The position numbers and the translations under genes are program-made. This document shows, piece by piece, positions 843 to 64,000 of a stretch of DNA of 64,000 nucleotides. This DNA is from Buxus sempervirens (lineage: Eukaryota > Streptophyta > Magnoliopsida > Buxales > Buxaceae). Below the pieces are notes generated by a model. The model saw nothing but the letters and a program-made list of their open reading frames with translations. It was not told the origin of the DNA and did not search any database. The stretch covers positions 19,432,366 through 19,496,365 of the forward strand of contig OX387185.1 in assembly GCA_947561395.2 (NCBI GenBank), read 5' to 3'. Positions within the stretch are counted from its first letter, which is position 1. Every line of letters starts with the position of its first letter.

Positions 843-1434
843 ATGCTGATTTGTGTTTCTCGACTGCAATGATCGATTATACGAGACCTGCTTATCCGTG
901 TTAGTCTTATTCGAGCATGAAATGATTATTTTATTAAATATAAACTGTTTAGCATGCATCGTGTTACCTATTTAGATATTCGTATCTCACTTTTTTGCTT
1001 TGTTTTGGTTTTCAGCTGATACGCGAGGAGGGGATCTTTGTGGTAATACTCAGGGTGATTTCATTGATTTCTTGCAAGAGGATTATTATTATCCAGATTG
1101 AGCTGAGGTTGATGAGAGATGAAATTTTGATATTTGACAGTTTATTTTATTTATTGGACATGATGTATTTAGAGAGAGAGAGTAAGAGTTTTTAGAACCC
1201 TTTTTGATTACACCATACTTGATCAATTAACTTGATGGTCATTTAATATTTTTTATATTTATTGTGATGATAGGCATTACACTTCTGCACATTATTCTTC
1301 CGCACTCTGATAATCACAATTGAATTAATTAATTTTAGTCTGGTTTAAATTGTTGATTATATATATTGGCCCAGTAGCACTTGGATTCAGGTTCGGATGC
1401 CGGTTTTGCATTGACCCAAGTTCGGGGTGCTACA
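843..1434 (+). mobile_element. LTR 3'-end fragment, family E
   Basis: This stretch matches the LTR at 63560-64000: GATTATACGAG, AGATATTCGTATCTCAC, TTTTCAGCTGATACGCGAG, GATTATTATTATCCAGAT, then GCACTCTGATAATCACAATTG. It ends GGGGTGCTACA at 1434, the expected LTR terminus. Only about the last 590 bp remain; polypurine tract, U3 and leader are gone, so a deletion joined the integrase relic to the LTR tail. Confidence 0.8.
974..1101 (+). other. LTR splice-acceptor module E0: hairpin, TTTTCAG, mini-exon frame
   Basis: Hairpin AGATA-TTCG-TATCT (974-987), T-rich tract, acceptor-like CAG at 1013-1015, then a frame read with two leading nucleotides (CT|GAT ACG CGA...) that stays open for 27 codons to TGA at 1099-1101, ending QEDYYYPD. 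The phase and the DYYYP tail match the E copy at 63690-63778. Splicing itself is inferred. Confidence 0.6.
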
Positions 1435-5676: not shown

Positions 5677-5814
5677 CTAAGTAGGTCGGCAAAAATCCTC
5701 CTCTCTATACCTTGGTGCCTTGTCCTTTCCTCTGTCCCCAATCCGGTCCTTCACACCGAACGTCGACGGCTCTGAAAGCAAAACAATAAAAACAACTTAT
5801 GAGACGAATGTCTC
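5677..5814 (-). other. LTR splice-acceptor module F: hairpin, CTTTCAG, mini-exon frame
   Basis: Minus strand: TTACT, hairpin GAGAC-ATTC-GTCTC (5814-5801), T-rich tract, CAG at 5774-5772, then two leading nucleotides and 30 open codons to TAG at 5679-5677, ending YREEDFCRPT. Compared with family A the fifth stem pair is C-G instead of T-A, a compensatory change. The acidic YREED tail equals that of family A. Confidence 0.6.
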
Positions 5815-6108
5815 AGTAAGCAACACATGCATGCTCGATAAAACACAGTTTAGGCTAATATCATTCCGAAGAAACCATGACATGCGGTGTAACACCCCGG
5901 TTTTGGGTCAATTTTCCCAGACCCGAGGAGTTATGGTAAGTAACAAAAGCAAATAAAAATCTGAATCAATTTAAACCTTCATTAATTTCATCATCAGAGT
6001 TTATGCGGAAACATGAAGTAGAATTTATTAATAATTGATACATTTCATTTGCAAAATTTTTCCAATTCTATAAACAAATCTACAACTATAAAATCTACCC
6101 CGTTACAA

Positions 6109-6175
6109 CTAGCCCAAAGTTTTGTCGTCCTCGTCAAGAGTACCTGAAAAATGGAAGAAACCGGAGTGAGAATAA
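6109..6175 (-). other. LTR splice-acceptor module B
   Basis: Minus strand: GAGA-TTTAT-TCTC weak hairpin, CATTTTTCAG with CAG at 6146-6144, then GT plus ACT CTT GAC GAG GAC GAC... open to TAG at 6111-6109 (TLDEDDKTLG). Same phase as the other families; acidic EDD but no aromatic tail. Confidence 0.5.
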
Positions 6176-6339
6176 ATCTCAACAAGTAGCAAGGTGCATG
6201 CATGAAATCAGTACATAATTTTCATAAAAATAAGTCATGAGGTGTACGATTAAACCAAAACAACAACCATAAAAACGATAATATAGAAATCATGGCAAAC
6301 AGCATGCCACCCTGTAACATCACACAATGAAAAATAATC

Positions 6340-22256: not shown

Positions 22257-25200
22257 TGTAACACCCCAGAACCGGGTTACATAGTAAAAACCATAACTCG
22301 TTCCCCAAGGGTTACTTTTATACACAGGATCGCTATATCAGAGTAAGGAAAACATGAAATGGCAATCACAAAATCAGAGTCAACTAAAAGTTTTCCCAAC
22401 TCACCTGAACCAATCATAAACCCGCCTGTATCGTCCTCTCGAAGATCTGAAAACAAAACAAAACAAAAGGAATGAGATACGACTATCTTAACAAGTAGCA
22501 ATGCATGCTCAAACATATTTAATTTAATTTCTAAAACATGCACGATTAAAATATACTCAACGACTAACCACAAATAAATCGATTAATCCGACTAATCCGG
22601 CAAAACAATATCAAATCACATAATAAGATGGAACTCGTGAAATTTGACCGCTTTGTAAGGTTAAGTTCTAGCTCCAAACAGTTCTAGTCCGAGAACCTCT
22701 GACAAATCTGATACCTCTGTAAACTGATTCCAATATTCCGTCTCTTGGTGGAAATCACAAGACCTCACCCTCCTCAAGGGTGGAAATGGATATCAATCCA
22801 GTCTGAGAACCACTGTCGTAACTGCTGCCAATAATAAACCTCATCCCCTCATGGGGTGGAAACGAAGCTGCTGCAGCACATCCCTCATGGAAGGCCTCTT
22901 TATATAGAGGAAACGCGTAAAATAAATCCCTCTTAGTTCGCAGCACTTCCCTCATGGAAGGCCTCTCTACATAAAGGAAACGCATGAAGGAAGCTAGACT
23001 TTAGCCAAACAAATTAGACAGACTTCACTTACTAGCTAAATTATGGATCCATAACGTGCTATGCCCTAAATAGTTTAAAATGATTAAACCAACCAGTAAA
23101 GCAAGGACTTCGATTCAAACCGAAATATTTCAACATGCAAACCATTATACAACTAAGTGCGAGCAACATATTCATGGCTACTCAGGGCCAACTTACTCCC
23201 TCATGGAGTTTCCCAATTTATTTCTCATGAAAATCCAAGAATGAATCAAAATGAATTAGACAATTGAAGCACAAAAACCCCTTTTATTTAAAACTGTCTA
23301 TATTGACTAAAAATTAACTCAAGTCAAATCAAAATAATGCTCAAGCAAATGAAGTCATTAACACTACCAAATTCAGCTCAACAATCCACTAGAATTCTCA
23401 ACAATGGAAATTTCCATAATTTGACACAACCGGTAAAAGTACTTTATAAATTAACCAAAATTAGAAACCAGCAATCTTTCGAAGAAAACATAACCAATTT
23501 CTAATCAGGTCACAAATAAAGAACAACAAATTTAATAATATTATAATCAGGTCAATAACTCTCCGATTAGCAAAATTTATTTTACATATTTCCAACATAA
23601 TCTCTCCTTCAAATTTATACTCAACTTTACTTTTCGTAGGGTTCTATTAGTTCTGGAAATCCTGTTTAGAATTTTGAACAAATCAATTTAAGCAACTAAG
23701 AGAATGGACATAATCTGAAATATTAGAAAGTATAAAGTTTTACTTAAATTCCAAATCTGCCATATATGCATTAGTACTATTCAATCCCCAAAACTGAATC
23801 AATTTTAGACCAAATCCTCTAAAATATTGTTAGTTAGTTTCCTCACTCACCCTTTTTCATCACCTAATAATAGTTTCTACAGAACTACTGTGATTAGAAA
23901 ATTATGTCCAAACAAACTACACTTTCAAGAAAAATCTGTGCAGACAGGTGCACAAAGAAATTGTATTTTAAATTACCAAAAACCCTACAAAGAAATTGTA
24001 TTTTTAAATGAATCTAGACCCAAAACCCTACAATTCTCATGAAGACCATCTTACCCAAATCCGTCATTTGATACCTACAAAAATTCACTTTTGTGGAAAA
24101 TTGGGTGTAGTCCCAAAACAGACATTTTCGCAACCTCTAAACTTAGAATTCAAAATTCACATGGACTGATCTAAATAATTCACATTCAAACTATTTCTAG
24201 CATATTTCTAATCCTCTAAATAGTGTTCTTACACAGGTTTGAATTTAATTGAATTGATCAAACAATTTCTACAGAAATATACACTCCAGTTCCACCCAAA
24301 ACAGACATTTTAGCAATCTATAAACTTAAACTCTCCAAGATGTAAAAATACCTTAAAATCTAGTCTCTTATTAATCTGGGAATTTCCAGAAAATAAAACA
24401 AGCCTAAATCCATCTTAAAATATAATCTATTTATTTTCTATTGAATTTTAATCATAACTATATCAATTCTGTGTTTTCTGACGTAGTGAGAAACAAATCC
24501 CCATAACTCATTCATTTCTTAACAAAATAACATGAAATCTGGTTTGTTAGACTTCTAACTCAATATACTAAAATAACCTATAGCATTTTTGCAAAATTCC
24601 TCTTGGTTAATTAATTATAAGTTTTCAAAATCACCTTTAATACAAAATCTGTACAGACTAACAGCTCTAATAATTCGATTAACATTACTAAATCATAGGT
24701 TTTTATCCCAGAATATATTTTTCAATGAAAATACAGAAATAATGGAACAACTTTCATTCAGAAACTGAAACCTAAATATATCTCCAAATTAGTCTAAAAA
24801 TTCCATATTTCTGAAAATTTCTGCAGAATCTGGGTTTTAACAGATTCTATCAATTTCGTTCAATTCAAAACTAAATTTCAGGATGTCCACAAAACACACG
24901 AAAATCATGACATTTGAAAGGGCTACATGCCTTATATTTGCTGGCCTCCCAACTTCAATAACCCTGCAATGAACTCAATTATTCACCATGGTCAAAACTC
25001 CTTCAAAATCTGATCTGGAAGTCTGGAGCACTCTACCACTTGAGTTTTGTTGCAGAAAATTCTTCCAAAAGACTCCAAATGAATTCTGGTTCTCCCCCTT
25101 ATGCTGCTCCTCTTTTCTCCAGCAACAAGGACTCCAAGAGTCCTTTCTCCAGCAGCAATAATTTCAATAGACCTTTCCCTAGTATCTAGAACTCCAAGAG

Positions 25201-26540: not shown

Positions 26541-27094
26541 AGGATGCCCTAATTTCTATTCTAAGTGTTTTTGAGAACACTTTTTCTTGTCTTGATCGTA
26601 TAGAACAAGAGGGAAAGTGTGGGAGCTTGCTTGGAAGCTTTAAGAGGAAGAAGAAGAAAGAGAGAAGAGCTTGGAGAGGAGGTTGCTTCTCCATTAACAG
26701 GTAAGTAGCAAACCCTTCAAAACAAAATGTATTACAAAATTCGTATTCTCTCTCTAAGATTTGATTTATTTGATGAAACGATCTTGCATGATGGTTTTTA
26801 CTTCTTAAATTCGTAGGGTTTTGGTTGTATGATAATCTTGTTTGGTTTCCTATTGATTTGCCATGGATTTCCACTCACATTGATCATATTTCGGATTAGG
26901 GTTTCAGGTTTGTGGATTAAATGAGATTTTATGTGTTAGATTTGTTTTCATGTGGATTTGGGATGAATCTTTGTTTTAGAAGGTGTTTTCAAGTGTATTG
27001 GGATGTTTTGTGATCACCCATTTTGATGTTGGAAAGGTTGGAAAGGATTTATATGAGTTTTGTGTTGAAAATAAACAAAATATTTCAAAAACCC

Positions 27095-28145: not shown

Positions 28146-28359
28146 TCTTGGTTAGTGGTCATTAATCTGATTTGGACATTTGACTTGAAATTGTTGATTT
28201 GATTTCATGAATTACCCGATTGAGATATTTGACTTGGAATTTCACTTTATATCTGTTTGAGATGTCTTGGTTTACATTTGGTACTTTATATTGTGAATAT
28301 TATCATGATGTTACAAAATTGCATAAACTATTTCTCTGCATGAATGTTTACTGCTTACT

Positions 28360-28485
28360 GGGACTTTAAGTCTCACACGTTTTGTTTTACCGGATTTGTT
28401 TTCAGATCCGCTTGGTGAGCCACGTACTGGGGCAGATAGTGAGGGTAAGCTTGAGCACGAGCCCAAGGACTTTTACTACCCGTAG
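28360..28485 (+). other. LTR splice-acceptor module T1
   Basis: CTTACTG, hairpin GGGACT-TTA-AGTCTC (28360-28374), T-rich tract, CAG at 28403-28405, then AT plus 25 open codons to TAG at 28483-28485, beginning PLGEPRTGADSEG and ending EPKDFYYP. The stem differs from family A at paired positions 5 and 6 (C-G and T-A against T-A and A-T). Confidence 0.62.
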
Positions 28486-32893: not shown

Positions 32894-33070
32894 AGCAACT
32901 TGACAAGCAAAGAATAGCTTCTCCGAGTCTTCTTCAAAATAGTTGGCATGGTGTTCTTTTTCTTTAAATCTACAATCTTTTTCTTTGTGTCCAAACTTCT
33001 TACAGTTTGTGCACTGGGGCTTCCCTTTGTGCTAGCAATCTTTCTCAAGATGATTAGTCTTCTTACAGAT
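32894..33070 (-). pseudogene. Cop2 Gag C-terminus with zinc knuckles
   Basis: Minus strand: the second half of knuckle CGICKKTNHLEKDC, a TAG at about 33033 where a W codon is expected (KDC-stop-HKGKPQC), then a second knuckle CTNCKKFGHKEKDC. LTR A1 splits the first knuckle. Confidence 0.85.
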
Positions 33071-33819
33071 TGTAAGACCCTGATTTTTGGTAGAGTATTT
33101 TTTTATTTTATTTTATTAAAATATAGCTTGGGCGCTTGTTAACTTAAGTGGCCGGAATATGTAGGGTTTCAGTGGGCGAGCATGCCCAGGAGCAAGGACT
33201 TTAAAAGGATGGTCGAGCGGCATATGTAGCGTATGAGGTGAAGATACAAAAAGGGAAAGTTAGGTCTTTGGGTTTTTAGAATACCCGTATCATACTTTTG
33301 GCAATACTTTCGTTACTCTTGTTATCTGGAGAACTGGGCGACTTGGAGATTGCGGCTGGTGTGGCGATTAGGGTTATGCCTGTGAAGAACAAGAATCGCA
33401 AGAGCTACTAGGAGGTTATTGGAGTCGGAGTTCTGTGGGTTATTTCTCTCGCGGCAGAGGATCCGTTCGGCTACATTTGCATCCTCGCGCGCAGCCGGAA
33501 ATCGTGATCGGTCGGTTGTGGAATAAGCTTTTATTCTGGGATAAGCGTATACGGGTGAGTAGCACTGATTTACAACTGAGGTTTTAGTTTATTCGTGATG
33601 TATTTTGAAACGCATGGGTGTATTGTGAGTTTTTGGTTTTCTGGAATACCATGAGTCCGAACGTGAGATTGAAATTCAATTTGAATTTAAAGGTGTTTAG
33701 ATTAAATCCAAAACTGGTTGGGAAGTATTCTGGGAACATTGGGAGTGTATTGGAACAATTACAAACTGAAACAAATCAGCCAGACATGGAGATCTCGAAA
33801 TAACAGAGACTTGAAAATC

Positions 33820-34110
33820 GTAGTGGGTATCCGCCCACCTGGCGCCCACTTGCCCCACTTCGGGAAGTAGGCGCATAGAAATATTGACCTGGCGCCGAGC
33901 TCGCACCCACTTGGCGCTCAACTTGCGCCCACTTAAATTAGATGCGCCTATCTCGCGCCTATCCCGCGCCCTTCTCGCGCCCTTCTCTCGCTCAGCTTGC
34001 GCTCACTTAGCGTCGAGTGAGCGCATAGTCGATTTTAGCCTGTTTCCTATCCGCTGACTGGCGCTCACCTGGCGCTCACTTCAGGAAGTGAGCGCATACC
34101 CAATTATACT
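33820..34110 (+). repeat. GCGCCCAC/GCGCTCAC word block (LTR A1)
   Basis: Dense GCGCCCACTT, GGCGCTCA, TCGCGCC and GTGAGCGCA words; GTGAGCGC and GCGCTCAC are inverse to each other and can pair. CpG-rich island in AT-rich LTR. Confidence 0.75.
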
Positions 34111-34679
34111 TGCCGAATTTGATTTCCGACTGAACCAAGAGTAATTTTGATGACTTGAGGATGATACCATTTAATCAATCACTTGTTTGGGAACCTTAGA
34201 ACCTGCATTACTTATGAAATTTCTAGAGGAAATTCTAGTGACAAATTCTTAAAGGTTTCTAAGTTTGAGATTAGGTTAATTGTATGTATTGTGCTGGATA
34301 CCAAAATAATAGGAGTTCCTAGTTTGTTTTATCCTTGAATTTGTACACGGTTTTGATCGAGAAATTATTGACTTCTGGTTTCACTTGTTTGAAAAATTCA
34401 GAATGTATTGTCTTGGTAAAATAACTGTGTTTTGTATTCAAATGGCATGGTTTGCGGAAATGAGAAAATACTGAAAGTATTGAGATACTGCTTGGTCCAG
34501 AAGGACAGGTGATGAACTGTGATGAGATATACATGATGTGGAATGAATGGTTTTACTTTAATGTTGGAATTGAGATTATACGATGTTTTACTATTTTGGT
34601 TTAGCTTGTCCTGGATCCAGATGTTTAAGCTTAGTAATGTAATGTTATTGTTGGTTGTTGGAATTGCATGGCCTTGTGT

Positions 34680-34830
34680 GTTGCCACGACCGGTGTAGAG
34701 CAACCAGAAACCCTGAGTAGGCCTGGTTGTCAATGCAGAAACCCGGGGAGTAGGCTTGCATTGGATGACGAAACCCTGAGTAGGCCGTCATTTCAGAGTT
34801 TCTGAAACCCTGAGTAGGCCGGAACTGTGT
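34680..34830 (+). repeat. AACCCTGAGTAGGCC repeats (LTR A1)
   Basis: Four or five units of GAAACCCTGAGTAGGCC with spacers of 15-25 bp; the same block is at 51475-51600 in A2, and a related GTAGGCC form is in D2 (57770-58150). Confidence 0.8.
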
Positions 34831-35060
34831 ACATGGAGGTGTGGAGTGTCTACTTGGCATGTTTAATTTATCAACCAAACGATAGTCATGACATTGACCA
34901 ATCGATGTGTTGCCGTACCTAACTGAGATGTGATTTGACTGATGAAATGGGTTTTGGTTTGAACTTGAAATTGATGTTAGTTGTTTAATCGTACGGAATG
35001 TTTATCGATGCATAGCTTTGAACTGTGATTAACTATTTCTGCATGCATGTGCTACTCGCT

Positions 35061-35180
35061 GAGATATTCGTATCTCACTCTGTTGTTTTGTTTTGATTTT
35101 CAGATACTCGTGGTGAGGCGACTACTAGGGTAGATCCTGCTGAGGCTTATAGGGAGGAAGATTACTATTACCTTCCTTAG
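35061..35180 (+). other. LTR splice-acceptor module A1
   Basis: CATGCATG upstream, hairpin GAGATA-TTCG-TATCTC (35061-35076, perfect 6-bp stem), T-rich tract, CAG at 35101-35103, then AT plus 24 open codons to TAG (35178-35180): starts TRGEATTRVDPAEA, ends YREEDYYYLP. If spliced, G from the donor plus AT would make Asp. Confidence 0.65.
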
Positions 35181-35434
35181 ACTTGTAGGTTATCTTGTTC
35201 CGAATTTGAGTACTTTGAATATTTGAGGTGTATTAAAGTCTATTTGGGGGTTGGACCATATGATTCTAGTTAAGTTCTAAATGTTACATTCTTGGATGAA
35301 TCAAATTGTGCACTCTGATAGGTTATAGTTAGATGATTATCCAGCGATCATAATTGATTAACGATCCTTGCCTAACCTCCGTGAGACGTGTTATATCTTT
35401 ATTGAACAACATGGATCCGGGGCGTTACACAGAT

Positions 35435-36208: not shown

Positions 36209-36232
36209 TGTCGACCCTTTGCAAATTGACCA

Positions 36233-36244
36233 GCTCTGATACCA
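36233..36244 (-). promoter_or_regulatory. Cop2 primer-binding site (tRNA-Met type)
   Basis: Plus-strand GCTCTGATACCA; minus TGGTATCAGAGC, one base after the 5' LTR end. Complementary to the 3' end of plant initiator tRNA-Met. Confidence 0.92.
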
Positions 36245-36245
36245 C

Positions 36246-36483
36246 TGATGGAAGAACAAAAGATGAATAGGGGGAGCACTTCTCTCCTTCTCTCTGTGAT
36301 ATATTGAAATAAAAATATTGTTGCTTTCATACCCAAGTACTTCCCTTGGTACATAACAGAGCATCACAAAGGAATTCCAAGCATCACTCCTAGGAACTCT
36401 AACAAAAGAGAGCAAAAGTAATAAATGGCAATTTCTAGAAAAACAGCAACTTTAATAATTCTGGAAACACAGCAACTTTAATA
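36246..36483 (-). repeat. Cop2 5' LTR
   Basis: 238 bp, minus strand TATTAAAGTTGCTG to CTTCCATCA. The first dinucleotide is TA rather than TG in both LTRs, as placed by the TSD. Confidence 0.9.
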
Positions 36484-37094: not shown

Positions 37095-37927
37095 TGTCAC
37101 AACCCGGACCTCGAATTTATCCATCTAAAATAAATCCAAACCCAAGGTGTGGACCTTCTGGGCCTAAAGTACAACTAATATCCAAACTATTAAAAAATAA
37201 ATATTAGAGTATGGCAGAATTTAGAATTTCATTAATACCCCAAAAATAATGCAGAAGTCGACACCAAATAATAAAGTCAAATTACTCTAATCACATAGTT
37301 TTGGACCAAAGGTCTAACTAAACTATGAACTCACATGATAATTAAACATCAAATCAAGCTCTTATAATAATAAAATTCATCTACAGTACTAAAATGGAAT
37401 TCCTACATAAGGCAAAAATGATCCTCCTCTATATAGTCCTCCATCTTGTTCTACCCCAACTGATTCTTTGTCACTTGGAATATCTGAAAACAATACATTT
37501 GAAAACATTTTGAGGGACATATGTATCAGTTATAACAAGAATGCATGCTCAAAAATATAATTCCAAAGATCTTTAAATTCATAAAATGAGTTCCATGAAG
37601 ATAACCAGTTTCCAAAAAAATCATAATAAGCCAATAAAAAAATTAATAGAAATGATAAAATCTACAAGATCTCAGAACAAGAATAGTAATGTTTTTTAGA
37701 TCATTCAAAAATCCACAACCAAATACTAATCACCAAGTGACATCACAGGACTTGTAAAATTAGACTTCTTTGAGAGATTAAACATGTTCCAATTGCCACC
37801 TCCCATCTTATATATGAAGTCAGACTATTCATTGTTTTGAACATCGACTTACTGTAGAGCACCCGACTAATCATAGATGGCAAGTATAATCCAGTCAAGA
37901 TCAAGAACCGCAATAGTATACCTATAG
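37095..37927 (-). mobile_element. LTR fragment, family C
   Basis: Plus-strand start TGTCACAACCCGGACCTCG, resembling the termini of the other LTRs. It contains the acceptor module (37550-37389), and is cut at 37928 by the Gyp2 LTR. The other half is not seen in the window. Confidence 0.6.
37389..37550 (-). other. LTR splice-acceptor module C
   Basis: Minus strand: GAGCATGCATTC, a poorly paired stem region, TATTGTTTTCAG with CAG at 37486-37484, then AT plus 30 open codons to TAG at 37391-37389, containing EQDGGLYRGGSFLPYV. The nucleotide run TATAGAGGAGGATCATTTTTGCC parallels TATAGAGAGGAGGATTTTTGCC of family F. Confidence 0.5.
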
Positions 37928-39852
37928 TGTAACGTCCCAGATCCATACCCAGCAACGTCCTCTCCAGGAATATCTGAAAACAAAACCGATAAAACAATAA
38001 TGTGAGAAAAAACATCTCAGTAAGTAGTCATGCAAATAGTTGACCACAATAAAATATGCAACGCTTAATGAGAATAACCACAATAAATACAGATTAGAAA
38101 CAATTTAATGAAAATAGATCAAACACAGTTGTTCACCTCATGGGACTCATGAAACAGTAAACCAAAGAAAGAGAGTAGCCATGTGCCAATATGCTACCTT
38201 ACCGAATTACAAATGGACCAGCCGCCCTGCAGTCTGGCTATTCAACACCAACGGAAGAACCCAACCATGGGTTAGCATGTACAGCCCAACCTATCCAGGA
38301 GTGGGTAACGTAGCAACTGACCTATCCAGGAGCGGTACCACCCTCGAGATGATAGAATGCCTATGACACAAAATTCAAACCCCTCTAATAAACATTTCAC
38401 TTACTAGCTATTCTATGGATCCATATAACCGCTAAGCCCACTCAACAGTGGAAAACAAACCAAGGAATAGACATACTTCTCAATAACACCAACAAATATA
38501 GAACCTCATCTGTATAACCAAATCCGCCCTGCGGAAACCAAGAAAACAGGCACCTGCCTTATCACAACTATGACCCAAAACCAAAACAAGATGTACCAAT
38601 TCATATGTCCAAACTCCAGGTTTCAATGGGCAAATATGTCCTGAATGTGTATCAATTCCATTGATGCACAAAATAACTTCATATCATCCAAATACAAGTG
38701 TATGATCTCACAAAATCAACTTTGGTTAAAAATAGAATCATTTGGAACAATGGTATTAAGTAAAAGTGCCTCTATGGTAAAATCTACCCAAAATCTTTAT
38801 AAAAATGAATTTTAAACATCCGCCAATGCAAACAATCTCTAAATACCCTAAACTTGACGATATATAGGTTAAAAATGGATAAAAACACTTTCGTAGTAAA
38901 AAACACTTTGGTCGTTACAGGGTTGGTCGCTCGATAGATCGCTCGAGCGACTGTTCGAGCGACAGTTCATTCTGGAAAAATTTCTCTCGGGTTTGACAAA
39001 CATACAAAGGGTGCTCGAGTGACTACTCAGGCAGCCCGATATGAAGAAAATCCGAAAAGTTACAAAATTCAATAAAAATTCCACAACTCAATATCCAATG
39101 CATCAAATCCATTCTAAATCATTCTAAAACACTTTATAAACATATTAGAACAATTTCCAACAAGTAAAACATCATAAATAACGAATACAACTCATCAAAT
39201 CACCGAATAACCATGAATAGCGAATAAACACAAATTTATTTTTGTGCAAGATTTTAAGGGACTACTTACCTGGTTTTAAGAACTTAAACCTTCTCTAAAA
39301 GCAATGAAAATCATTCCTAAGATCGCCAAACGATCACAACAAGCCTCGATGGCTCCAATAAGAACTTGAGTATTAGGATTTGATCCTTGGAAGAAGAAAG
39401 AAGAATAGAGGTAAGAGAAGGAACGTGCAGCTGTTTCCTTTGGGCTTATACGTGAATAGCCTCATGTATATTTAGGCTATTTTATTAATTTGTTTTCTTT
39501 TACCAATTTACCCTCCTTCTTTAAGCCAAACTATCAAACTACTTAATCCTTAGACCAATTCAACCTTTGGGTCAACCCACCCTCTTTAGGTTCGACCATC
39601 TCCTCTAGTTCCTTATATATTTTACTTTTAATTAGTTCTTACTAATATAAACAATAGCACAACTACATATTATTATATTAAAATTATATTTGGCCTAAAA
39701 TCATGAACTCACCTTATATAGGCTCATCCATCTCCTCCGGTTCACTTTAAACTCCTCCGGTTTGAACCAATATCTCATCTCCTGCATATTATTAACCCAA
39801 TCAGTCTATTTAATAATTAGTTTTATTTATCACTAAAATTTGGGATTTTACA
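37928..39852 (-). repeat. Gyp2 3' LTR (family D')
   Basis: 1925 bp, minus TGTAAAATCCCAAATTTTAG to GGATCTGGGACGTTACA. Contains TATA (39713-39722), donor AACCAG|GTAAGTAGTCCC (GT at 39269-39268), CGCTCGAGCG palindromes (38925-39035), short CCTATCCAGGAGYGGTA repeats (38280-38340), hairpin and acceptor (CAG 37976-37974). Here only 46 bp separate the acceptor from the LTR end, so the frame (IPGEDVAGYGSG) runs to the terminus. Confidence 0.85.
39713..39722 (-). promoter_or_regulatory. TATA box of Gyp2 3' LTR
   Basis: Minus-strand CCTATATAAGG in GAGCCTATATAAGGTGAG; identical context at 60238-60246 in the plus-strand D' copy. Confidence 0.6.
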
Positions 39853-39903
39853 TTCTCCCTTCCTACAAATAAATTTTGTCCTCAAAATTTTACCTCGAGA
39901 TTC

Positions 39904-41301
39904 CTAAAATAAAGATGGGTACTTCTTCATTTCAAATTCCAACTCCCATGTAGCTTCTTCCACTGTATGACTCTGCCACAGCACATTAACAAGTGGAATC
40001 ACCTTCGTACGAAGGATCTACTCACGTCTGTCTAATATCTGCACCGGATGCTCCTCATAAGTCAAATCCTCATGTATGACCAAAGGCTCGTAGACAATGT
40101 TATGACTAGGGTCATGCACATATCGCCTTAGCATCGAGACATGGAACACATCGTGAACTGCTCCAAATGAAGATGGCAATGCTAAGTGGTACACCACTGG
40201 TCTCACTGTACCAATAATCTCAAAAGGTCCTACAAATCTGGGGGAAAGCTTTCCTTTCTTGCTGAACCTTTTTATACCATGGAAAGGAGATACCTTAATG
40301 AATACTCTATCACCAACCTCAAATTTTAGATCTCGCCACCTAGTATCCGCATAACTCTTCTGACGACTTTGAGCTGCCAATAATCTCTGCTTGATCAATT
40401 TCACCAAATCAACACTGTCCTGCACGTACTGAGGACCCAAATACTGCCTTTCACCAACTTCCTCCCAATAGACTGGTGATCTACATGCTCTACCATACAA
40501 TGCCTCGTACGGTGCCATCTGAATGCTTGCCTAATAACTATTATTGTAGGCGAGCTCTACCAAAGGTAGGTGCTTACTCCAATTACCTCCCCAATCAAGG
40601 ACACAACATCGTAACATATCCTTAAGTGTCTGAATGGTCCTCTCTAACTGCCCATCGGTCTGAGGATGGTAACTTGTGTTAAACTTCAACTCTGTACCCA
40701 TGGCCTTCTGGAAAGACTCCCAGAACTGAGATGAGAATCTAGGATCACGATCAGAAACAATGGATACTGGCACCCCATGCAATCTCACTATCTCCCGTAC
40801 ATATAGCTCTACTAGTACATTAAGTGTTTGGTTCATCCTGATAGGTAAAAAATGAGCTGATTTAGTCAAACGGTCCACTAACACCCATATAGCATCATGC
40901 CCCTTTGGAAAAAGAGGAAATCCACTCACAAAATCCATGGTGATATGCTCACATTTTCATTCTGGAATAAGAAGGGGCTGAAGCAACCCTGTTGGTCTCA
41001 TGTGCTTTGCCTTGACTTGCTGACACACCAAGCACTTAGCCACATATTCTGCTATATTCTTCTTCATTCCTGACCACCAATATACTACCCTCAAATTTCT
41101 ATACATCTTCGTACTGCCAGGATGCACTGCATACTTTGATCTGTGAGCCTCTGCCATAATCACTGCCTTAATATCCTCATCAGCTGGTACACAAATGCAA
41201 CCCTGGAATCTCACTAATCCATCCCTTTCAGTAAAGTCTCTGATAGTCTCAGAACCCTCATTCAACAATTTCCTGGTAGTAGTCAACTCTAGATCTGTCA
41301 A
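39904..41301 (-). pseudogene. Gyp2 integrase with chromodomain-like C-terminus
   Basis: Minus strand: HHCC zinc region (AEAHRSKYAVHPGSTKMY, CLVCQQVK), a TGA where W is expected before KCEH, core ([45 protein letters not shown]), TAG after YNNSY (Q position, about 40529), ALYGRACRSPVYW, GDRVFIKVSPFHGIKRF, GPFEIIGTVRPV, HVSMLRRYVHD, then EEHPVQILDRRE, a stop, and VIPLVNVLWQSHTVEEATWE ending at 39904. The VLW...EEATWE tail is the chromodomain signature of Tekay-like elements; it would direct integration to marked chromatin. Confidence 0.9.
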
Positions 41302-42831
41302 CTAACTCACCCTGATCCTATGAATCAAATCAGGCCCTACCTGAATCTGGCCACTCGGATAACTCCCTCCTGAGGTAACCGGAACTCTCCCTGCCAATCA
41401 CGAATTGCATCTACAATACTACACTGACTAGCAGCTAAAGTAGCAATGGAAGTCTCATCAATAGCACCTTTACGACTCAAGGCATCTGCGACTACATTCA
41501 TCTTGCCTGGATGGTACTGTAGTGTAAATCTAAAATATTTCAATAGATCCATCCATCTCCTCCGCCTCATGTTGAGATCCCTCTGGGAAAATATGTATCT
41601 CAAGCTCTTATGATCTGAAAAAATCTCAAACTCAACCCCATATAAGTAATGCCTCCATATCTTCAATGCTAAGACTATGGCTGCCAACTCCAAGTCGTGC
41701 TGGGGTAATTCTTCTCATGAGGTCTTAATAAACGGGATGCATCACAATAGACAGAAAAAGGCTCATCCATGGATGGTACAATCAACACTGGGGTCGTGGT
41801 AAGTCTCTTCTTCAACTGCTGAAAACTCTGCTCACACTTGTCATCCCACTTAAATGGAACTACTTTCTTAGTTAAATTGGACAACAGTGATGCTATCTTG
41901 GAAAAACCCTCAATAAATCGGCGGTAATATCCAGCCATGCCAAGGAAACTGCGGATCCTTGTCACTGTGGTAGGTCTAGGCCAATTTGCAACTGCTGGAC
42001 TTTGGTGGGGTCCACTGAAATACCTTCACCTGAGATAACATGACCAAGAAAAGAGATCTGCCCTAGCCAAAACTGGCACTTACTGAACTTGGCATATAAC
42101 CGATGGTTCCTCAAAGTATGGAGTACTATTCTTAGATTCCCAACATGCTTCTCCTGAGTCCTGGAGTATACCAAAATATCATCGATGAAAACCAGCACAA
42201 AGTTATCCAGATACTGATGGAAAATTCGGTTCATAACATCCATGAATATTGCGGGGGCATTAGTCAACCCAAACGGCATGACTAGAAACTCATAGTGCCC
42301 ATACCAAGTCCGAAATGCTGTCTTCTCTATATCTTCTTCAGCCACTCTTAACTGATGATAGCCTGATCTCAAATCAATCTTGGAAAACCAAGATGCGCCT
42401 CTCAACTGATCAAACAAATCGTCGATCCTAGGCAAAGGGTACTTGTTCTTAACCGTGACTTGGTTAAGCTACCATCCTTCTTCGGCACAAAAAGAACTAG
42501 TGCACCCTACGGCGACACGCTTGGTCTAATAAATCCCTTTTCTAGAAGCTCATCTATCTACTTCTTTAATTCATCTTGCTCAGGTTTTGCCAACCTGTAA
42601 GGTGGCTTAGACACAGGAGCCGTACCAGGCTGAAGCTGGATTCTGAAATCAATGGCTCTAGCGGGTGGTAATCCTGGCAGATCATCAGGAAATACATCCT
42701 CGAACTCAGATACCACTGGCACATCAGAAAGATCAACTGTGTCACTCCTGGTCTCCTCTATTTCCATCGAAGCAACTAACCCAATCCAACTATCCAATCC
42801 CTCACAGATAAAGCAATAAGTCGGCTGCTCA
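41302..42831 (-). pseudogene. Gyp2 reverse transcriptase and RNase H
   Basis: Minus strand from 42831: a linker (CFICEGLDSWIGLV, EFEDVFPDDLPGLPP), PPYRLAKPEQDELKK, stop, IDELLEKGFIRPSVSP, stop, then RT ([57 protein letters not shown], catalytic [23 protein letters not shown]), frameshift near 41965, RSFLGMAGYYRRFI, PFSVYCDASR, frameshift near 41690, RNase H ([35 protein letters not shown]), stop at about 41337. Domain order is standard for gypsy. Confidence 0.92.
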
Positions 42832-45450: not shown

Positions 45451-46094
45451 TTTGGTTTAAGCACTGGTTTTACTCTTGGAATTGAATGGTTTGTTTTGAT
45501 TTATGAGTCATCTAATTGGACATTGTTCTTAGTGTGGATCCACAGTGAGTCTAATTAATGTGTTGGTGTTGGCTTGTTAGCTTTAATCTCCTTATCCATA
45601 TAGCATTCCACTATGGGGAATCAGTGAGGCCTTCTCGGGGAACAGAGGGCTGCGGCAACCCCCCCCCCCCCCCCCCATCGAGGGGAACCGGCGGGAGTCC
45701 TTGCGATTCATCGAATAGTGGGTGGGGAATCCCACTTAGTCTGGATCCTTGGTTAGGTTGACTACTTGCCAGCCCATATGTGGGTACTCCGCTTGCTGAG
45801 ATGTCCCTAGCTAGGCTTCTCTCTGTAAGTCCTGTAGGTGGCAATGGATACTGGTCATTAATCTAATTTACAGACACGCTAACCACGAGTCCTAACAAGA
45901 CATGTTTACAATATTTGATCGTATTTGTTGATTTGATTTCATGAGTTACTCGATTGAGATATTTGAATTGGAATTTCTTTTTATATCCGATTGAACTATT
46001 TTGATTTACATTTGGTACCATATATTTGTGAATATCATGATGATGTTATAAAATTGCATAAATTGTTTCTATGCATGCATGTTTGCTGCTTACT

Positions 46095-46222
46095 GGGACT
46101 TTATGTCTCACACGTGTTTTGTTTTATCGGATTTGTTTTCAGATCCGCTTGGTGAGCCGCATACCAGGGCAAATATAGAGGGTAGGCTTCATTTCAGGAC
46201 AGAGTACTACCACCCCCAGTAA
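46095..46222 (+). other. LTR splice-acceptor module T3
   Basis: Hairpin GGGAC-TTTAT-GTCTC (46095-46109), T-rich tract, AG at 46141-46142, then AT plus 25 open codons to TAA (46220-46222), starting PLGEPHTRANIEG and ending TEYYHPQ. Same exon length (80 nt) as T1. Confidence 0.6.
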
Positions 46223-48468: not shown

Positions 48469-48569
48469 TTACTCAAGCTCACCCTCAGTAACTACCCCGG
48501 TACGCGGCTCACCAAGTGGATCTGAAAACAAATCCGGTAAAACAAAACACGCGTGAGACTTAAAGTCCC
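48469..48569 (-). other. LTR splice-acceptor module T2 (mini-exon frame shortened)
   Basis: Minus: hairpin GGGACT-TTA-AGTCTC (48569-48555), CAG at 48524-48522, then AT plus PLGEPRTGVVTEGELE and TAA at 48471-48469. T1 and T3 continue to FYYP or EYYHP; T2 has lost the tail. Confidence 0.55.
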
Positions 48570-49194
48570 AGTAAGCAGCAAACATGCATGTAGAGAAACA
48601 GTTTATGCAGTTTTTATAACATCATGATGATATTCACAATTATATAGTACTAAATGCAAACCAAAACAGTTCAATCGGATATAAAAGAAATTCCAATTCA
48701 AATACCTCAATCAAGTAACTCGGGTGATCAAATCAACAAATACGATCAAATACTATCAACATGTCTTGATAGGACTCGTGGTTAGCATGTCTGTAAATTA
48801 GATTAATGACCAGTATCCATTGCCACCTACACGACTTACAGAGAGAAGCCTAGCTAGGGACATCTCAGCAAGCGGAGTACCCACGTATGGGCTGGCAAGT
48901 AGTCAACCTAACCAAGGATCCAGACAAAGTGGGATTCCCCACCCACTGCTCGATGAATCGCATGGACTCCCGCCGGTTCCCCGCGACGGGGGGTTGCCGC
49001 AGCCCTCTGTTCCCCGAGAAGGCCTCACTGATTCCCCACAGTGGAATGCTATATGGATAAGGCAATTAAAGCTAACAAGCCAATACCAACACACTAATTA
49101 GACTCACTGTGGATCCACACTAAGAACAATGTCCAATTAGACGACTCATAAATCAAAACAAACCATTCAATTCTAAGAGTAAAACCAGTGCTTA

Positions 49195-49683: not shown

Positions 49684-52181
49684 TGTAAGACCCTGAATTT
49701 TGTGAGTATTTATTTATTTATTTAGTTATTTATTCTGATGTATAAACTGTGTTTATCAGGTTATTTTGTGGTTTGAGGGCTTAGCCCATACTCATATGTA
49801 CAGGCGTTATATAGCCATTTTTTTAGAAAAATCATAGTATTATCATTGGTATTATTAAGGCGTAGTTATGTGATTATTAACGCGAATAGATGCTGAACAT
49901 GTAGTATCTTCGGTGGGCGAGCATGCATAGGATCAAGGGGTTAAAAGGGTTGATCCATCGGCGTATACATCTCGCAAGGTAAGTGTTAAATGAGCAAATA
50001 AGGGAAAGTAGGGTTTTTAGTTTTAAACGAAATACGCGTATACTTACGGAAATATTTTCGTTAAGTCTGGAGATCAGGCGAACTCGCGATTTCGGCTGGA
50101 GTGGCGACTAGGGCTTCTGTTCGTCAAGAACCATAAATCGCAAGTGCTGGAAGAAGGAGTTCGGAGCTGAAATTCATTGGGTTATTTCTCTCTGCTCGAG
50201 AAGATTAGTTTCGGTAGACTTTTCATTCGCGTGCGTGGCCGGAGAAGTGATCGGCCGAGGTTTTACCATTCGAGAATAAGCACACTCAGGTGAGTAGCAC
50301 TGTTTTACAACTGGGATTGTGTTTTTCGGTTTCTCTCGAGATTATTCTGATGCATGAGTATATATAAAGTGATTGTGTGAGTTTTCTGGGTTTTTCTGGT
50401 TTTCGGAAAGTTGCATGAACAGAGTCTCCGGATTGAAATTATAATTGAAAATGAAAGTGTTTAGATTAATTTCAAATATGGTTGGGAAGTCTTCTGGGAG
50501 TATTAGGAGTGTACTGGAGTAGTTACAGACCTTCACAAACCGGCCAGTCATGTAGATCTCAAAATAACAGAGAAATGAAAACCACAGGGGGTATCCGCTC
50601 ACCTCGCGCTCACCGGCGTTCACCTCGGAGGTAGGCGCCCCGTTAATAATGACCTACCGCCGATCCCGCGCCCATCTCGCGCTCATCTCGCGCGAAGTAG
50701 AAAACGAGGCACCCATCTCGCGCGAATCTCGCGCCCACCTCACGCCCATCTCGCGCTCATCTCGCGCTCACCTAGCGTCGGGTGAGCGGCAGGTCGATTT
50801 TGCCCTTTTTCTTCACCGCCGACCGGCGCTCACCTCGCGCCCACCTCAATAGGTGAGCGGCAGACCTATTTTGCTTACCGAAATGGAATTTCTGATTTGA
50901 CCAAGAGTATTTGCATTACTTAGGGGTTAAACCACTTCACTATTCACTTGGTTAGGAACCTGGGAAACCATTTTACCTATGAAATTAATAGAGGAAAAAT
51001 TTGTGAACATCTTATGAGTTTTAAGTTGAGTTTAGGTTGCTTATGAGTATTGTGCCGGACACCAAACTAGTAAGAGTTACCAGTTACTTTTCCTTGTTCT
51101 ATACAATGTTTTGATTGAGAAGTTCTTGTATTTCTGGTTTCACTTGTTGGAAACTTTATACGTATTGAAAAGTTTTCTTTGGTATGAATGGATTGAGTTT
51201 TACTTTCATATGACTTGTGTTATAGAAATGAGAAAATACTGAATGTACTTGAGGTACTGCTTGGTCCAGAGGGACAGGTGATGAATTGTGATGAGTTATT
51301 ACATGATGTGGAATGAATGGTTTTGTTTTGATATTGAAATCGAGATTATACGATGTTTACTGTTTTGGTCTAGCTTGTCCTGGATCCAGATGTTTAAGCT
51401 TAGTAATGTGATGTTATTGTTGGTTGTTGGAATTGCATGGCCTTGTGTGTTGCCATGACCGGTGTAGAGCAGCCAGAAACCCTGAGTAGGCCTGGTTGTC
51501 AATGCAGAAACCCGGGGAATAGGCCTGCATTGGATGACGAAACCCTGAGTAGGCCGTCATTTCAGAGTATCCGAAACCCTGAGTAGGCCGGAACTGTGTA
51601 CATGGAGGTGTGGAGTGTCTATTTGGCATGTTTAATTTATCAACCAAACGATAGTCATGACATTGACCAATCGATGTGTTATTGTATTTAACTGAGAGGT
51701 GATTTGTTTGATTTGAACTTGGGAAATTGATGTTGGTTGTTTAAACGTATTGTAGTGTTGTCGATGCATAGTTTTAAAAGATGATTCAACTATTTCTGCA
51801 TGCATGTGCTACTCGCTGAGATATTCGTATCTCACTCTGTTGTTGTTCTATTTTTTCAGATACTCGTGGTGAGGCGATTTCTGGGGTAGATCCTGCTGAG
51901 GCATATAGGGAGGAAGACTACTATTACCTTCCTTAGACTTGTAGGTTATCTGTTCCGAATTTGAGAACTTGAATTAATTGAGATGTATTACAGTAATTGG
52001 GGATGAACCATATGATTTCAGTTCAGTTTAAATGTTACAATTTTGCATAAATGGAAATGTGCACTCTGTTAGGTTATAGATGTATGATTATCCAGCGATC
52101 ATAAATTGATTAACGATCCTTGCCTAACCTCCGTGAGACGTGTTATATCTTTAATGAACAACACGGATCCGGGGCGTTACA
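49684..52181 (+). mobile_element. Solo LTR, family A, copy A2
   Basis: TGTAAGACCCTGAATTTTGT to GGATCCGGGGCGTTACA, 2498 bp, perfect TSD gcttc (49679-49683, 52182-52186), inside T2. Donor CAG|GTGAGTAGCAC (GT at 50290), GCGCTCACC/GGTGAGCG block (50590-50870), CCTGAGTAGGCC repeats (51475-51600), hairpin (51818-51833), acceptor (51859), CACTCTGTTA (52062). Confidence 0.93.
51818..51936 (+). other. LTR splice-acceptor module A2
   Basis: Hairpin GAGATA-TTCG-TATCTC, CAG at 51857-51859, AT plus 24 open codons to TAG (51934-51936), TRGEAISGVDPAEA start and YREEDYYYLP end. Only a few codons differ from A1, and the frame is preserved. Confidence 0.65.
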
Positions 52182-58150: not shown

Positions 58151-58479
58151 CGGATGTGTGGACTTGAGCATGATGTGATTTTTATCGATATTGGAGATTG
58201 ACTTGACTTGAGATATATCTATTGGATTGCTATGAAAACTCAGTTTCATCGAGACGAAGTTTACGATTACATTGAATTTTGTGATTATTCAGGTTAGTTG
58301 ACAGCGATACTATAGATTTGAATTACATGCTGGTCTTCATTAGCTATATCATTTTTATCTGATGATTTATTGTGAGCTTGGTTGGATTAATCGTGTTATT
58401 GCCATCGTTACCTACGTATTATTCAATCCATGTTTTATAACTATGAAAAATGTATTTGTGCATACATATGCTGCTTACT

Positions 58480-58570
58480 GGGATATTCGTATCTCATTCC
58501 GTATTGTTTTGTTTTGTTTTCAGCTGCTCCTGGAGATGACGATATCATGGGTAATTGCTCAGTTATGTGA
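58480..58570 (+). other. LTR splice-acceptor module D2
   Basis: CTTACTG, hairpin GGGATA-TTCG-TATCTC (58480-58495, one G-T pair), (TTTTG)n, CAG at 58521-58523, then CT plus 14 open codons to TGA (58568-58570): APGDDDIMGNCSVM. Same phase, acidic, no aromatic tail. Confidence 0.55.
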
Positions 58571-61812: not shown

Positions 61813-64000
61813 TGTAAAACCCCGAATTTTCCTTAAATAATAATATGAATTAATAAATAATATTAGTGAGAGTTATAATTGATGGAAATAATTTATTATT
61901 GTAGGGGATGATCTAATTAGTGGAGATCCAGAATTAGACGCAGATCTGACCGTCCGATCATGAGATATCGAGGTATGTATTCTGATTAGGCATGTGTATG
62001 GAATTTGGTGTATGTGAGATACGTGGGATCGGAGAGTATAAGTATTAGTTTAATAAGCTAAATCATATACGCTCGTATTTCGTTTGTTTTCGACAGCCGC
62101 AAGCGACAAACTCGACTAAAGGAGAAGAAGAAGAGGAGGAGGAGGAAAGGTCTGGTTTTGAGTTCTTCATCGTCCAGAGTGTTGCTGGGTGATAGAGAAT
62201 CGTTGTTGAGAGAAGAGAGGAAGAGGAACGTTCATTCAAGAGGTAGGTGACACCGTTTACCTTCGTTTTTGTATTTACATGTGTTTAATTGACAAAATCA
62301 TGTTTTTATGATATATAATGATGTATATATGTTGATAATCATGTTATATATATGTTAGAATGAGTTTAGACGAGAAAAATCATGATTTGGAACTGATTCT
62401 AATCGTTTTCGAACGACCGCCAACCTCGACTGTGCTTGGCGATCGTCGGCGATCTTAGGCGTTCGTTATAAATTTCAGACCGCCGTAGACCGCTTTGAAG
62501 ACGTATCGTCGGCGTTCGATTTTGAACTACCGCCGACCACAGACCGCCGGGGTGATCCTGAGCGATCCTAGGCACTCTGTTCAGATTTTGCAGATTTTCA
62601 TAATTTCACACCCTGATTCAATTCGAAACTATTTTTAGACAATTTTAATGATTAAATAAGATGTTTTAAGACCAAAAAAAACTATCTAATTCCTTGTTTT
62701 AGAGAAAAATAAATTAGGGAGGTATTTAGGACATTAGTTGCCAAACTTTGAAAGAAATGGAGAAACCTAGTTTTTGGAAAACCTAACTTGTATTTAATCA
62801 CTAGAACATCTTCTAAATGACACTATAAACCAGAAAACTATATATAGAGAATTTAGAACTCAGATGACCGAATATTGAAGTAATTGACAGATTTAACCTT
62901 TATATGCCGCTAGGCACCAACCCTTATAGAAATATTATATTTTAGGGAATTTTGAAGTCTAGTGGGCATAGCTGGTTATGGATCCATAGTTGTAGCTAGA
63001 TAGCTGAGGGATATGTCATTTGGGTTGAGTTACTCCTATATGCGACGCGCTTCCTTTGCAAGTTAGTTTGTCTGGGAAGGTCCTATGTCTGGAGGGACAC
63101 CCCGGTGAGCCGCTGGTGATTCGCTGTACATGTGGATAAGCGACCATCTCCATGTATTAATTTTGGTGCTACATGTTGGTGGTACATGCTAACTTTGATG
63201 GGTACGTGTGCAATAAGTCAGTGACTACGGCTCTTGTCTAAGCTGCGCTGCATGGGACTTGAGTATCATTAGTAGCATTGCTCCTAAGTCGCACGGTGGT
63301 ATAGCAATTGGTTGCGAATCATCTCAAAAGGTTTATCTATCTTTGTGAGTCCTACAATGACACTGAAATCACAACACTTGATATTATTATTGAATACATG
63401 CTGGAGGCATGTGATTGGGATATTGATCGGATGTTACTGCTTAGTGCATCCTAGCAAAGTGTGAATCATGTTATTGATCTTGATATTGGATTCTTATATT
63501 AAATTTGCTGACATTCATTTCTAGAACTGTTTATCAAACTGTTTTGTATACATGAATGATATGAATGATTATACGAGCCTGATTAGTCGATATTGCTTAA
63601 TCGTGCATGAACTGTTACTTTATTTATATGAACTGTTACGAGCCTAATTGGGATATTCGTATCTCACCCTACTTTTATTTCATTTTCAGCTGATACGCGA
63701 GAGGGGGATCTTAGTGATTTCCAGGGAGAGATAGCTGAGTATACACCGGAGGATTACTATTATCCGGATCTTGTTTGAGGTGGATGAATGACATAGACTT
63801 AGCACTTTTGATTAGATTATTATTATTCATTTGGATTTGATGTATTAGAGAGATGAAAGAGAGATAGTAACCAGTTTATTTTACCAGACTTTGATATTAA
63901 TGATTGATGATCAAACTATATGTTATTTGAGGATTTTAAACTACATTTCCGCACATACTTGTTTCCGCAACTCTGATAGTATAATAAGTTGAATGGATTT
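61813..64000 (+). mobile_element. LTR, family E (runs off the window)
   Basis: TGTAAAACCCCGAATTTTCC start inside the D' LTR; presumptive left TSD ccatc (61808-61812). Purine-rich leader (GAAGAAGAAGAGGAGG, 62121), donor AG|GTAGGTGA (GT at 62243), GGCGATCGTCGG/CCGCCGACC block (62405-62580), weak repeats (63060-63150), hairpin-acceptor module, CAACTCTGATAG (63969). The missing end should resemble 1400-1434. Confidence 0.82.
63650..63778 (+). other. LTR splice-acceptor module E1
   Basis: Hairpin GGGATA-TTCG-TATCTC (63650-63665), T-rich tract, CAG at 63687-63689, then CT plus 28 open codons to TGA (63776-63778), DTREGDLSDFQGEI start, PEDYYYPDLV end. Confidence 0.63.

What the first reader, a model, noticed from the sequence alone, without database searches (positions are those of the whole stretch)
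35061..35103. Conserved hairpin with compensatory changes in front of a 3' splice-site-like tract, in 13 LTR copies of 8 families
Seen: the copies at 974 (E), 5814- (F), 6175- (B), 22488- (D1), 28360 (T1), 35061 (A1), about 37550- (C), about 38005- (D'), 46095 (T3), 48569- (T2), 51818 (A2), 58480 (D2) and 63650 (E) carry a small inverted repeat followed by a T-rich tract and TTTTCAG or a close variant. Stems: A GAGATA-TTCG-TATCTC; F GAGAC-ATTC-GTCTC; T GGGACT-TTA-AGTCTC; D2/E GGGATA-TTCG-TATCTC; D1 AGATA-GTCG-TATCT; B and D' only GAGA/TCTC; C poorly paired. Paired positions change together (T-A to C-G, A-T to T-A). Outside this module the families do not look alignable. Several copies have CTTAC just before the stem, fitting a plant branch-site consensus. 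Inference: a structured RNA element at the end of an LTR intron.
Basis: partly seen in the sequence, partly recalled or inferred. Interest (0 to 1): 0.92.

Follow-up and report, generated by a model that had tools for sequence, protein, structure and literature searches.

The report
Hairpin splice site inside retrotransposon ends
The repeated ends (LTRs) of many jumping-gene families in this plant-like genome share a small RNA hairpin just before a splice-site-like sequence, and the piece after it reads like the last coding bit of the element's own enzyme gene, which would make the LTR a hidden exon; no RNA has been checked yet.

Summary
Confirmed, and larger than reported. All 13 sites carry the module; a model built from 11 finds the two held-out ones. 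With only the flanks fixed, 1,164 places turn up genome-wide against 3 for the reversed pattern. Of the 100 listed (all on one contig), 92 form at least 5 contiguous base pairs (shuffled mean 12.8), and inner pair 6 occurs as T-A, C-G, T-G and A-T. The module lies 1.8-3.5 kb into long LTRs of Ty3/gypsy elements, before an AG; in many of these LTRs a GT(A/G)AGTAG donor lies upstream. What follows the AG is more than leader: in one frame (phase 1) it is, in many families, a short codon-conserved C-terminal stretch with a stop. The pol gene ends about 40 nt before the LTR at a phase-1 donor, mostly AG|GTAAA, after which its frame is lost (48 of 49 rows phase 1). Three of five fetched elements show both halves. 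Best reading: Pol's last exon lies in the 3' LTR and the hairpin marks its acceptor, which may also serve the leader in the 5' LTR. Splicing itself is unproven.

The parts
33071..35429 (+). LTR A1 (TGTAAGACCC ... GGGGCGTTACA) that holds the finding
33555..33556 (+). GT of the leader donor TATACGG|GTGAGTAGC in LTR A1
35061..35076 (+). hairpin GAGATA-TTCG-TATCTC (7 bp with the flanking T-A)
35077..35103 (+). T-rich tract and TTTTCAG acceptor
35104..35180 (+). stretch after the AG; phase-1 reading (D)TRGEATTRVDPAEAYREEDYYYLP*
951..1030 (+). module E1 (LTR piece fused to pol near 837)
5761..5835 (-). module F (held out of the model, recovered)
6129..6202 (-). module B
22432..22509 (-). module D1
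28337..28420 (+). module T1
26701..26702 (+). GT of the leader donor of T1 (AACAG|GTAAGTAGC)
37469..37549 (-). module C (held out, recovered; stem decayed)
37959..38034 (-). module D' in the 3' LTR that follows the pol below
39894..42468 (-). gypsy RT / integrase / SH3_Tf2-1 stretch of pol ending YPSLF*ESR-G at a phase-1 donor CTCGAG|GTAAAA; this copy has stops and frame breaks
39892..39893 (-). GT of the pol-end donor, 41 nt before the 3' LTR start at 39852
39268..39269 (-). GT of the leader donor (ACCAG|GTAAGTAGTC) of the same LTR
46072..46157 (+). module T3; leader donor GT at 44089
48507..48592 (-). module T2; LTR end 48072, gag directly downstream
51797..51874 (+). module A2 in LTR 49684-52181; leader donor GT at 50290
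58459..58538 (+). module D2
63629..63704 (+). module E2; LTR starts 61813, donor GAG|GTAGGTGACACC near 62243

Best explanation
The module is the 3' end of a spliceosomal intron that lies inside long LTRs of Ty3/gypsy elements (Tekay-like, by recall). In the 3' LTR the acceptor opens the last coding exon of the pol gene: pol stops being coding at a phase-1 donor just before the polypurine tract, and splicing would join it to about 8-35 codons plus stop in the LTR. The intron removed would hold the polypurine tract, U3 and promoter, so spliced RNA could serve as mRNA but not as replication template, while unspliced RNA is the genome. In the 5' LTR the same acceptor can serve a leader donor (GT(A/G)AGTAG). 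The hairpin sits between likely branch-site words and the AG, so it probably shortens the effective distance and tunes acceptor use. Shown: module, stem conservation, donors, phase match, codon conservation of the stretch. Inferred: that splicing happens, which donor pairs with it, the protein tail, the spacer role.
For: Stem: 92 of 100 listed flank-selected places (88 with a loop of at most 7) have at least 5 bp, shuffled mean 12.8, max 22; pair 6 is T-A 40, C-G 35, T-G 3, A-T 1, unpaired 2 of 81 anchored distinct rows. Stretch after the AG: E[DEN][YF][YFCH] before the first stop in frames 0/1/phase-1 in 1/0/25 of 64; G[EDK] within 10 codons 6/5/44; synonymous share at codons not used to pick rows 0.304 vs 0.129 permuted, 0 of 2000 as high; all three stop codons are used. 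Pol donor: phase 1 in 48 of 49 rows, AG|GTAAA in 44 of 49, A-run of 3/4/5 in 24/16/8 rows so that the frame is lost just after GT. Both halves in one element: L047, L051, L048+L052. Upstream of the leader donor no in-frame ATG was found in phase 1 in any of 14 rows (open codons 0-60), so the coding partner is not LTR exon 1 as fetched.
Against: No RNA or protein data. Two protein searches with the tail found nothing. No clear copy with the leader junction was found for family A; the search for a pol-tail junction did not complete. The phase-1 frame is the longest of the three in only 32 of 64 stretches, 19 of 64 end within 15 codons and 13 fit neither class. 11 of 49 pol rows have an in-frame stop before the donor, 5 of them as the very last codon, which could be a plain pol end. 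2 of 5 fetched pol-LTR junctions showed no module in what was fetched. A second acceptor near the LTR start (exon A) could be the main partner of pol in some families. Copies are related, so shuffles overstate covariation.
Confidence: 0.72

Rival explanations
1. Leader intron only: the acceptor is used in the 5' LTR with the GT(A/G)AGTAG donor, and the downstream stretch is untranslated leader whose codon look is accidental.
For: The donor is seen upstream in A, D, T and C type LTRs: 12 of 37 rows against 3 for the reversed and 1 for the antisense pattern. In 10 D-type sites a further donor [CT]A[TG]|GT(A/G)AGT follows 42-45 nt after the AG. gag of L010 is preceded by TGCTTACAG.
Against: Codon conservation and stop placement in one frame, and the pol frame ending in the matching phase. 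The two uses do not exclude each other.
Confidence: 0.15
2. DNA-level palindrome, e.g. a dimeric transcription-factor site or cruciform, with the T tract and AG by chance next to it.
For: The stem is a near-palindrome with two strongly conserved arms.
Against: Departures from Watson-Crick pairs are 62 G.U cells against 9 A.C, though 49 of the 62 are at one pair and the rest are 13 against 9; stem sequence changes while pairing stays, at a fixed place before the AG; the G.U variant TGGGATATTCGTATCTCA folds at -4.5 in sense and -0.6 in antisense.
Confidence: 0.06
3. Shared descent only: one old LTR 3' end inherited by all families, with no function for the stem.
For: The families are related elements; the LTR end GGATC.GGGGCGTTACA and GCATGCAT upstream are shared too.
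Against: Between A, T and E types the alignable core is the module and the bases just after it; paired changes with wobble intermediates; 6-bp and 7-bp stems where both arms change length together.
Confidence: 0.08
4. Pol is normally completed by a short intron into exon A near the LTR start, and the hairpin exon is a minor or alternative end.
For: Phase-1 exon-A peptides such as GDEILVQP.. and NEILVQPGGVQDEPEVMGEPI* in L047, L049, L051 and the window copy; GDDLISGDPELDADLTVRS* type in E LTRs.
Against: In the T-type L048 the longest such stretch among the candidates listed is 10 codons and off-pattern, and in A the best candidate read by eye has 4 codons, while the hairpin exon is present in these types.
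Confidence: 0.2

Closest known systems
CRM group A chromoviruses (Neumann et al. 2011, PMC3059260, passages read); also the CRM and Reina examples of beet (PMC3605345, passages read)
   Same: The pol coding region of a plant chromovirus continues into the 3' LTR.
   Different: There the reading frame runs on and encodes the CR motif; 'intron' and 'splic' have 0 hits in PMC3059260. Here the frame is lost before the LTR and taken up again 1.8-3.5 kb inside it, behind a hairpin acceptor. In the beet paper the Tekay-type Bongo3 is given a TAA stop overlapping an extra tract.
Ogre elements (Ty3/gypsy Tat), partly spliced intron (as cited in PMC6317226 and PMC12786077, passages read; primary paper not held)
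   Same: A plant gypsy element whose pol needs splicing of a subset of transcripts.
   Different: [quoted passage not shown] no hairpin acceptor is named in the passages seen.
EVADE / BARE1 type short GAG isoforms (PMC12786077, PMC7730604, passages read)
   Same: Splicing separates an mRNA from the genomic RNA.
   Different: Ty1/copia (EVADE is so named; BARE1 recalled), and the product is GAG; here gypsy and the end of Pol.
Hairpins between branch point and 3' splice site in yeast introns (recalled; the search listed one preprint on another subject)
   Same: A hairpin between branch site and AG.
   Different: Those are single genes; this one recurs in more than a thousand LTR places.

Membership tests
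U2-type (GT-AG) spliceosomal intron | 5' splice site GT(A/G)AGT-like | tested here: met
   GT(A/G)AGTAG upstream in 12 of 37 rows (controls 3 and 1) and GTAGGTGACACC in 3 E-type rows; pol end AG|GTAAA in 44 of 49
U2-type (GT-AG) spliceosomal intron | pyrimidine tract and AG | tested here: met
   TTTTCAG or close variant at 13 of 13 window sites; some fetched copies have changed AGs, e.g. L018, L017
U2-type (GT-AG) spliceosomal intron | branch site | tested here: inconclusive
   CTTAC before the stem in 6 of 13 window sites; several others have YTAC-like words nearby
U2-type (GT-AG) spliceosomal intron | spliced RNA | not testable with these tools
   no transcripts held
Ty3/gypsy chromovirus, Tekay clade | gypsy pol domains | tested here: met
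   RVT_1, rve (below its cut-off), SH3_Tf2-1, RVP_2, Retrotrans_gag in separate window pieces
Ty3/gypsy chromovirus, Tekay clade | chromodomain at the integrase end | tested here: inconclusive
   EEATWE..YPSLF words seen, but the 36-aa piece has no Pfam match; the label Tekay is recalled
Ty3/gypsy chromovirus, Tekay clade | place in an RT tree | not tested
   no tree built
CRM group A (pol runs into the LTR unspliced) | uninterrupted pol frame across the LTR start | tested here: not met
   the word downstream of the donor falls in all three frames, 19/14/9 of the 42 rows that hold it
Rfam families | gathering-score match | tested here: not met
   0 matches in the window

The most novel reading that the evidence does not exclude
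A whole lineage of plant gypsy elements encodes the C-terminus of Pol as a separate exon inside the 3' LTR, behind an intron that contains the polypurine tract and promoter, and uses one conserved RNA hairpin as a switch between mRNA and genomic RNA; because LTRs are copied, the same acceptor also trims the leader at the other end.
Probability: 0.5. Interest if true: 0.88.

Novelty: new variant of a known kind. Interest (0 to 1): 0.75.

Why it matters
A recent review states that plant LTR elements generally lack introns, with Ogre and EVADE as notable exceptions (PMC12786077, passage). If this reading holds, pol genes of a common plant lineage have been annotated with the wrong end, LTRs are coding sequence, and there is an RNA-level explanation of how these elements keep translation and replication templates apart. 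The conserved stem also gives a richly sampled natural set for testing how RNA structure sets 3' splice sites.

Tried and rejected
LTR exon 1 as the coding partner: no in-frame ATG in phase 1 upstream of the donor in 14 of 14 rows; the frame is closed within 0-8 codons in 10 of them and open for 32-60 codons in 4 (L023 open over the 219 nt fetched, no in-frame ATG). Donors in gag as partner: no shared strong phase-1 donor in the two elements scanned. Reading the hairpin and T tract as a signal peptide continuing into the exon: the tract length is not kept in multiples of three. Retrocopies of the leader junction: no exact match; 7 places with one mismatch read like ordinary intron ends or a small deletion; a longer pattern gives 1 place against 2 controls. 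Protein database: nothing. MAFFT mis-registers 6-bp and 7-bp stems, so pairs were counted by anchoring each arm by sequence (1 of 82 distinct rows could not be anchored). 4 of the 92 paired rows pair over a loop longer than 7, i.e. not with the usual arm. One weak model hit (L049, E=0.0027) is not a module. Row choices: one unrelated row of 50 dropped; the codon tests pick rows partly by motif, so repeats it on codons not used for picking. The model recoveries are of loci picked by the stem word or by the flanks, so they are not blind. Papers: search listings; passages of PMC3601003, PMC6317226, PMC7730604, PMC3059260, PMC3605345, PMC12786077, PMC2832683, PMC6523491, PMC2864245. None of these listings or passages reports splicing into a Tekay LTR; this covers the open-licence library only.

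Full report
What was checked. The window lies in an unnamed 676.5-Mb genome. The exact 16-mer GAGATATTCGTATCTC of the finding occurs 2370 + 2265 times there; the reversed, not complemented, control occurs 0 times. The 22 places that I fetched from that list all carry the module. All 13 sites of the finding are real. A model from 11 of them recovers the two held-out ones with E=4.6e-8 and 2.9e-4, next best 0.18. It also scores the 24 loci L023-L046, which I picked from the flank pattern by stem variant, and L047, L051 and L052.

Is the stem a real RNA feature? The test that leaves the stem free fixes only GCTACTTACT before and TTTTCAG after, with 20-50 free bases. There are 585 + 579 places, controls 1 and 2. 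The 100 listed are the first on one contig. Of these strings (82 distinct), 92 form at least 5 contiguous pairs from the fixed T; shuffling the 17 bases gives a mean of 12.8 and a maximum of 22. 88 of the 92 do so with a loop of at most 7. Among 81 anchored distinct rows, pair 6 is T-A 40, C-G 35, T-G 3, A-T 1, C-A 1, A-G 1; shuffles pair 74% on average and at most 84%, observed 98%. Over six pairs there are 62 G.U cells against 9 A.C cells, which fits pairing in the sense RNA; 49 of the 62 are at pair 3, so the asymmetry rests mostly on that pair (13 against 9 elsewhere). Stems of 6 and 7 bp exist, with both arms changing length together. A count on 28 aligned loci, one of which (L049) is a false hit, gives 92.6% paired cells against at most 61.5% in slid versions, and both-side changes at 3 of 7 pairs; that alignment was fitted to the structure. 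Related copies make all these shuffles generous. RNA energies of 14 stem variants are -0.1 to -6.6 kcal/mol, with decayed stems at the weak end.

Where it lies. LTRs run from TGTAARAYCC to about GGATC.GGGGCGTTACA. T2 is followed directly by gag on its strand, and L010 by a TGGTATCAGAG primer site and gag, so the module is on the sense strand. From module start to LTR end it is 252-535 bases in the 23 rows where an end was found. Upstream in the same LTRs, at about +430 to +1500 depending on family, lies a donor: GT(A/G)AGTAG in A, T, C and some D types, and GAG|GTAGGTGACACC in E types. The first is present within 3.3 kb upstream in 12 of 37 rows against 3 for the reversed and 1 for the antisense pattern; the second in 3 rows; together 14 rows. 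One of the 12 (window 63629) finds its match in an older LTR further upstream, and two rows share one LTR. Many other rows are cut short or diverged. In 13 of these 14 rows GC is lower in the first and last 300 bases of the intron than in 150 bases of exon 1 and 90 bases after the AG; in one (window minus, D') the last 300 equal exon 1. GC also falls again after the first 90 bases. The tract between stem and AG varies freely in length.

What the stretch after the AG is. I looked at 64 of them. By the script's rule 32 are long (two of them, L021 and L047, lack the typical tail), 19 end within 15 codons, 13 fit neither. Typical readings in phase 1 (first codon split G|NN) are (D)TRGEATTRVDPAEAYREEDYYYLP*, (D)PASETRSGAEVEGYPEYRPEDYFYPG*, (E)NPIGRVRARIDKDSDSDIYYPEDYYFPS* and short (G)DLGEDALG*. 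The motif E[DEN][YF][YFCH] occurs before the first stop in 25 of 64 in this frame and in 1 and 0 in the others; G[EDK] in the first ten codons in 44 against 6 and 5. At codons not used to choose rows, 30.4% of codon differences are synonymous, against 12.9% under column permutation, 0 of 2000 as high (27 distinct rows). Long tails end in TAG 26, TGA 5, TAA 1; short ones in TAG 12, TGA 5, TAA 2. Against this, the phase-1 frame is the longest of three in only 32 of 64.

What it joins. Upstream of the leader donor there is no in-frame ATG in this phase in 14 of 14 rows. The end of pol is the one partner found. A pattern from the EATWE end of pol to the LTR start gives 50 places, control 0. In 49 related rows the pol frame (..KKYPSLFEESQ) reaches a GT in phase 1 in 48, with AG|GTAAA in 44; the A-run after GT is 3, 4 or 5 long in 24, 16 and 8 rows, and the conserved word that follows falls into all three frames (19, 14, 9 of the 42 rows that hold it). 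Eleven of the 49 rows have stops upstream, five of them as the last codon before the donor. So the frame is mostly kept up to the donor and lost at once after it. Of five junctions fetched with LTR sequence, three show the module with a phase-1 stretch downstream: L047 (IPGEDVAGIETPGDYCDY*), L051 (IPGEDVAGVDTPGNYCAYQEEDYFIPVEVQEDMG*) and L048+L052 (PPGEPRIEGDPDYRPEDYYYYPQ*; two adjoining pieces, same LTR judged by distance). L049 and L050 showed none in what was fetched. The window copy at 39852-42468 (-) has the same layout but is broken.

Mechanism. I take the acceptor to be shared. In the 3' LTR it would complete Pol from the pol-end donor, and in the 5' LTR it would take the leader donor. 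The spliced 3' end lacks the polypurine tract and U3, so it could not be a replication template; that separation of mRNA and genome is the likely benefit. The hairpin lies between CTTAC- or CTAC-like words and the AG and hides about 14-18 nt, a plausible spacer. These last points are inference.

Known relatives. In CRM group A chromoviruses the pol frame runs straight into the 3' LTR (PMC3059260, passages). The beet survey says the same for its CRM and Reina examples, while its Tekay-type Bongo3 ends at a TAA by an extra tract (PMC3605345, passages). A 2025 review names Ogre and EVADE as notable exceptions to plant LTR elements lacking introns (PMC12786077, passages). The LTR survey PMC3601003 could not build models for plant Metaviridae LTRs (passages). 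None of the searches listed in Tried and rejected turned up this arrangement. The clade name Tekay is recalled from sequence words; Pfam confirms gypsy domains only. The host plant was not identified. On rechecking two facts were mended and neither moved the main odds: the E-type exon 1 is open for 1, 8 and 60 codons, and the G.U asymmetry rests mainly on one pair, for which I raised the DNA-palindrome rival slightly, from 0.05 to 0.06.

Noticed in passing
L051 161 onward; L047, L049; window minus strand about 39784-39700; E LTR window about 61905-61975: A second acceptor near the LTR start with a phase-1 open stretch (exon A: NEILVQPGGVQDEPEVMGEPI*, GDEILVQTGGV*, GDDLISGDPELDADLTVRS*), whose own donor TATATAAG|GTGAGT overlaps a TATA-like box in L051 and the window copy.
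   Followed up: partly
D-type sites: window 58459 (+) and 22447 (-), L001, L004, L008, L013, L014, L015, L021, L022: The stretch after the AG carries a second conserved donor [CT]A[TG]|GT(A/G)AGT 42-45 nt in, in 10 sites, as if it were a tiny internal leader exon.
   Followed up: partly
L010 minus strand, about 5400-5430: Acceptor-like TGCTTACAG directly before the gag start codon.
   Followed up: no
LTR A (window 49684-52181) vs L021: 81% identity that begins within 5 nt of the leader donor while exon 1 does not align: LTRs look modular, as if swapping their promoter part.
   Followed up: no
window 6332-7156: 75-nt tandem repeat, 8 overlapping copies listed, upstream of module B on its strand.
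   Followed up: no
window 2083-4104, 30410-33031, 35399-36451 (-): Ty1/copia gag and pol stretches nested among the gypsy LTRs.
   Followed up: no
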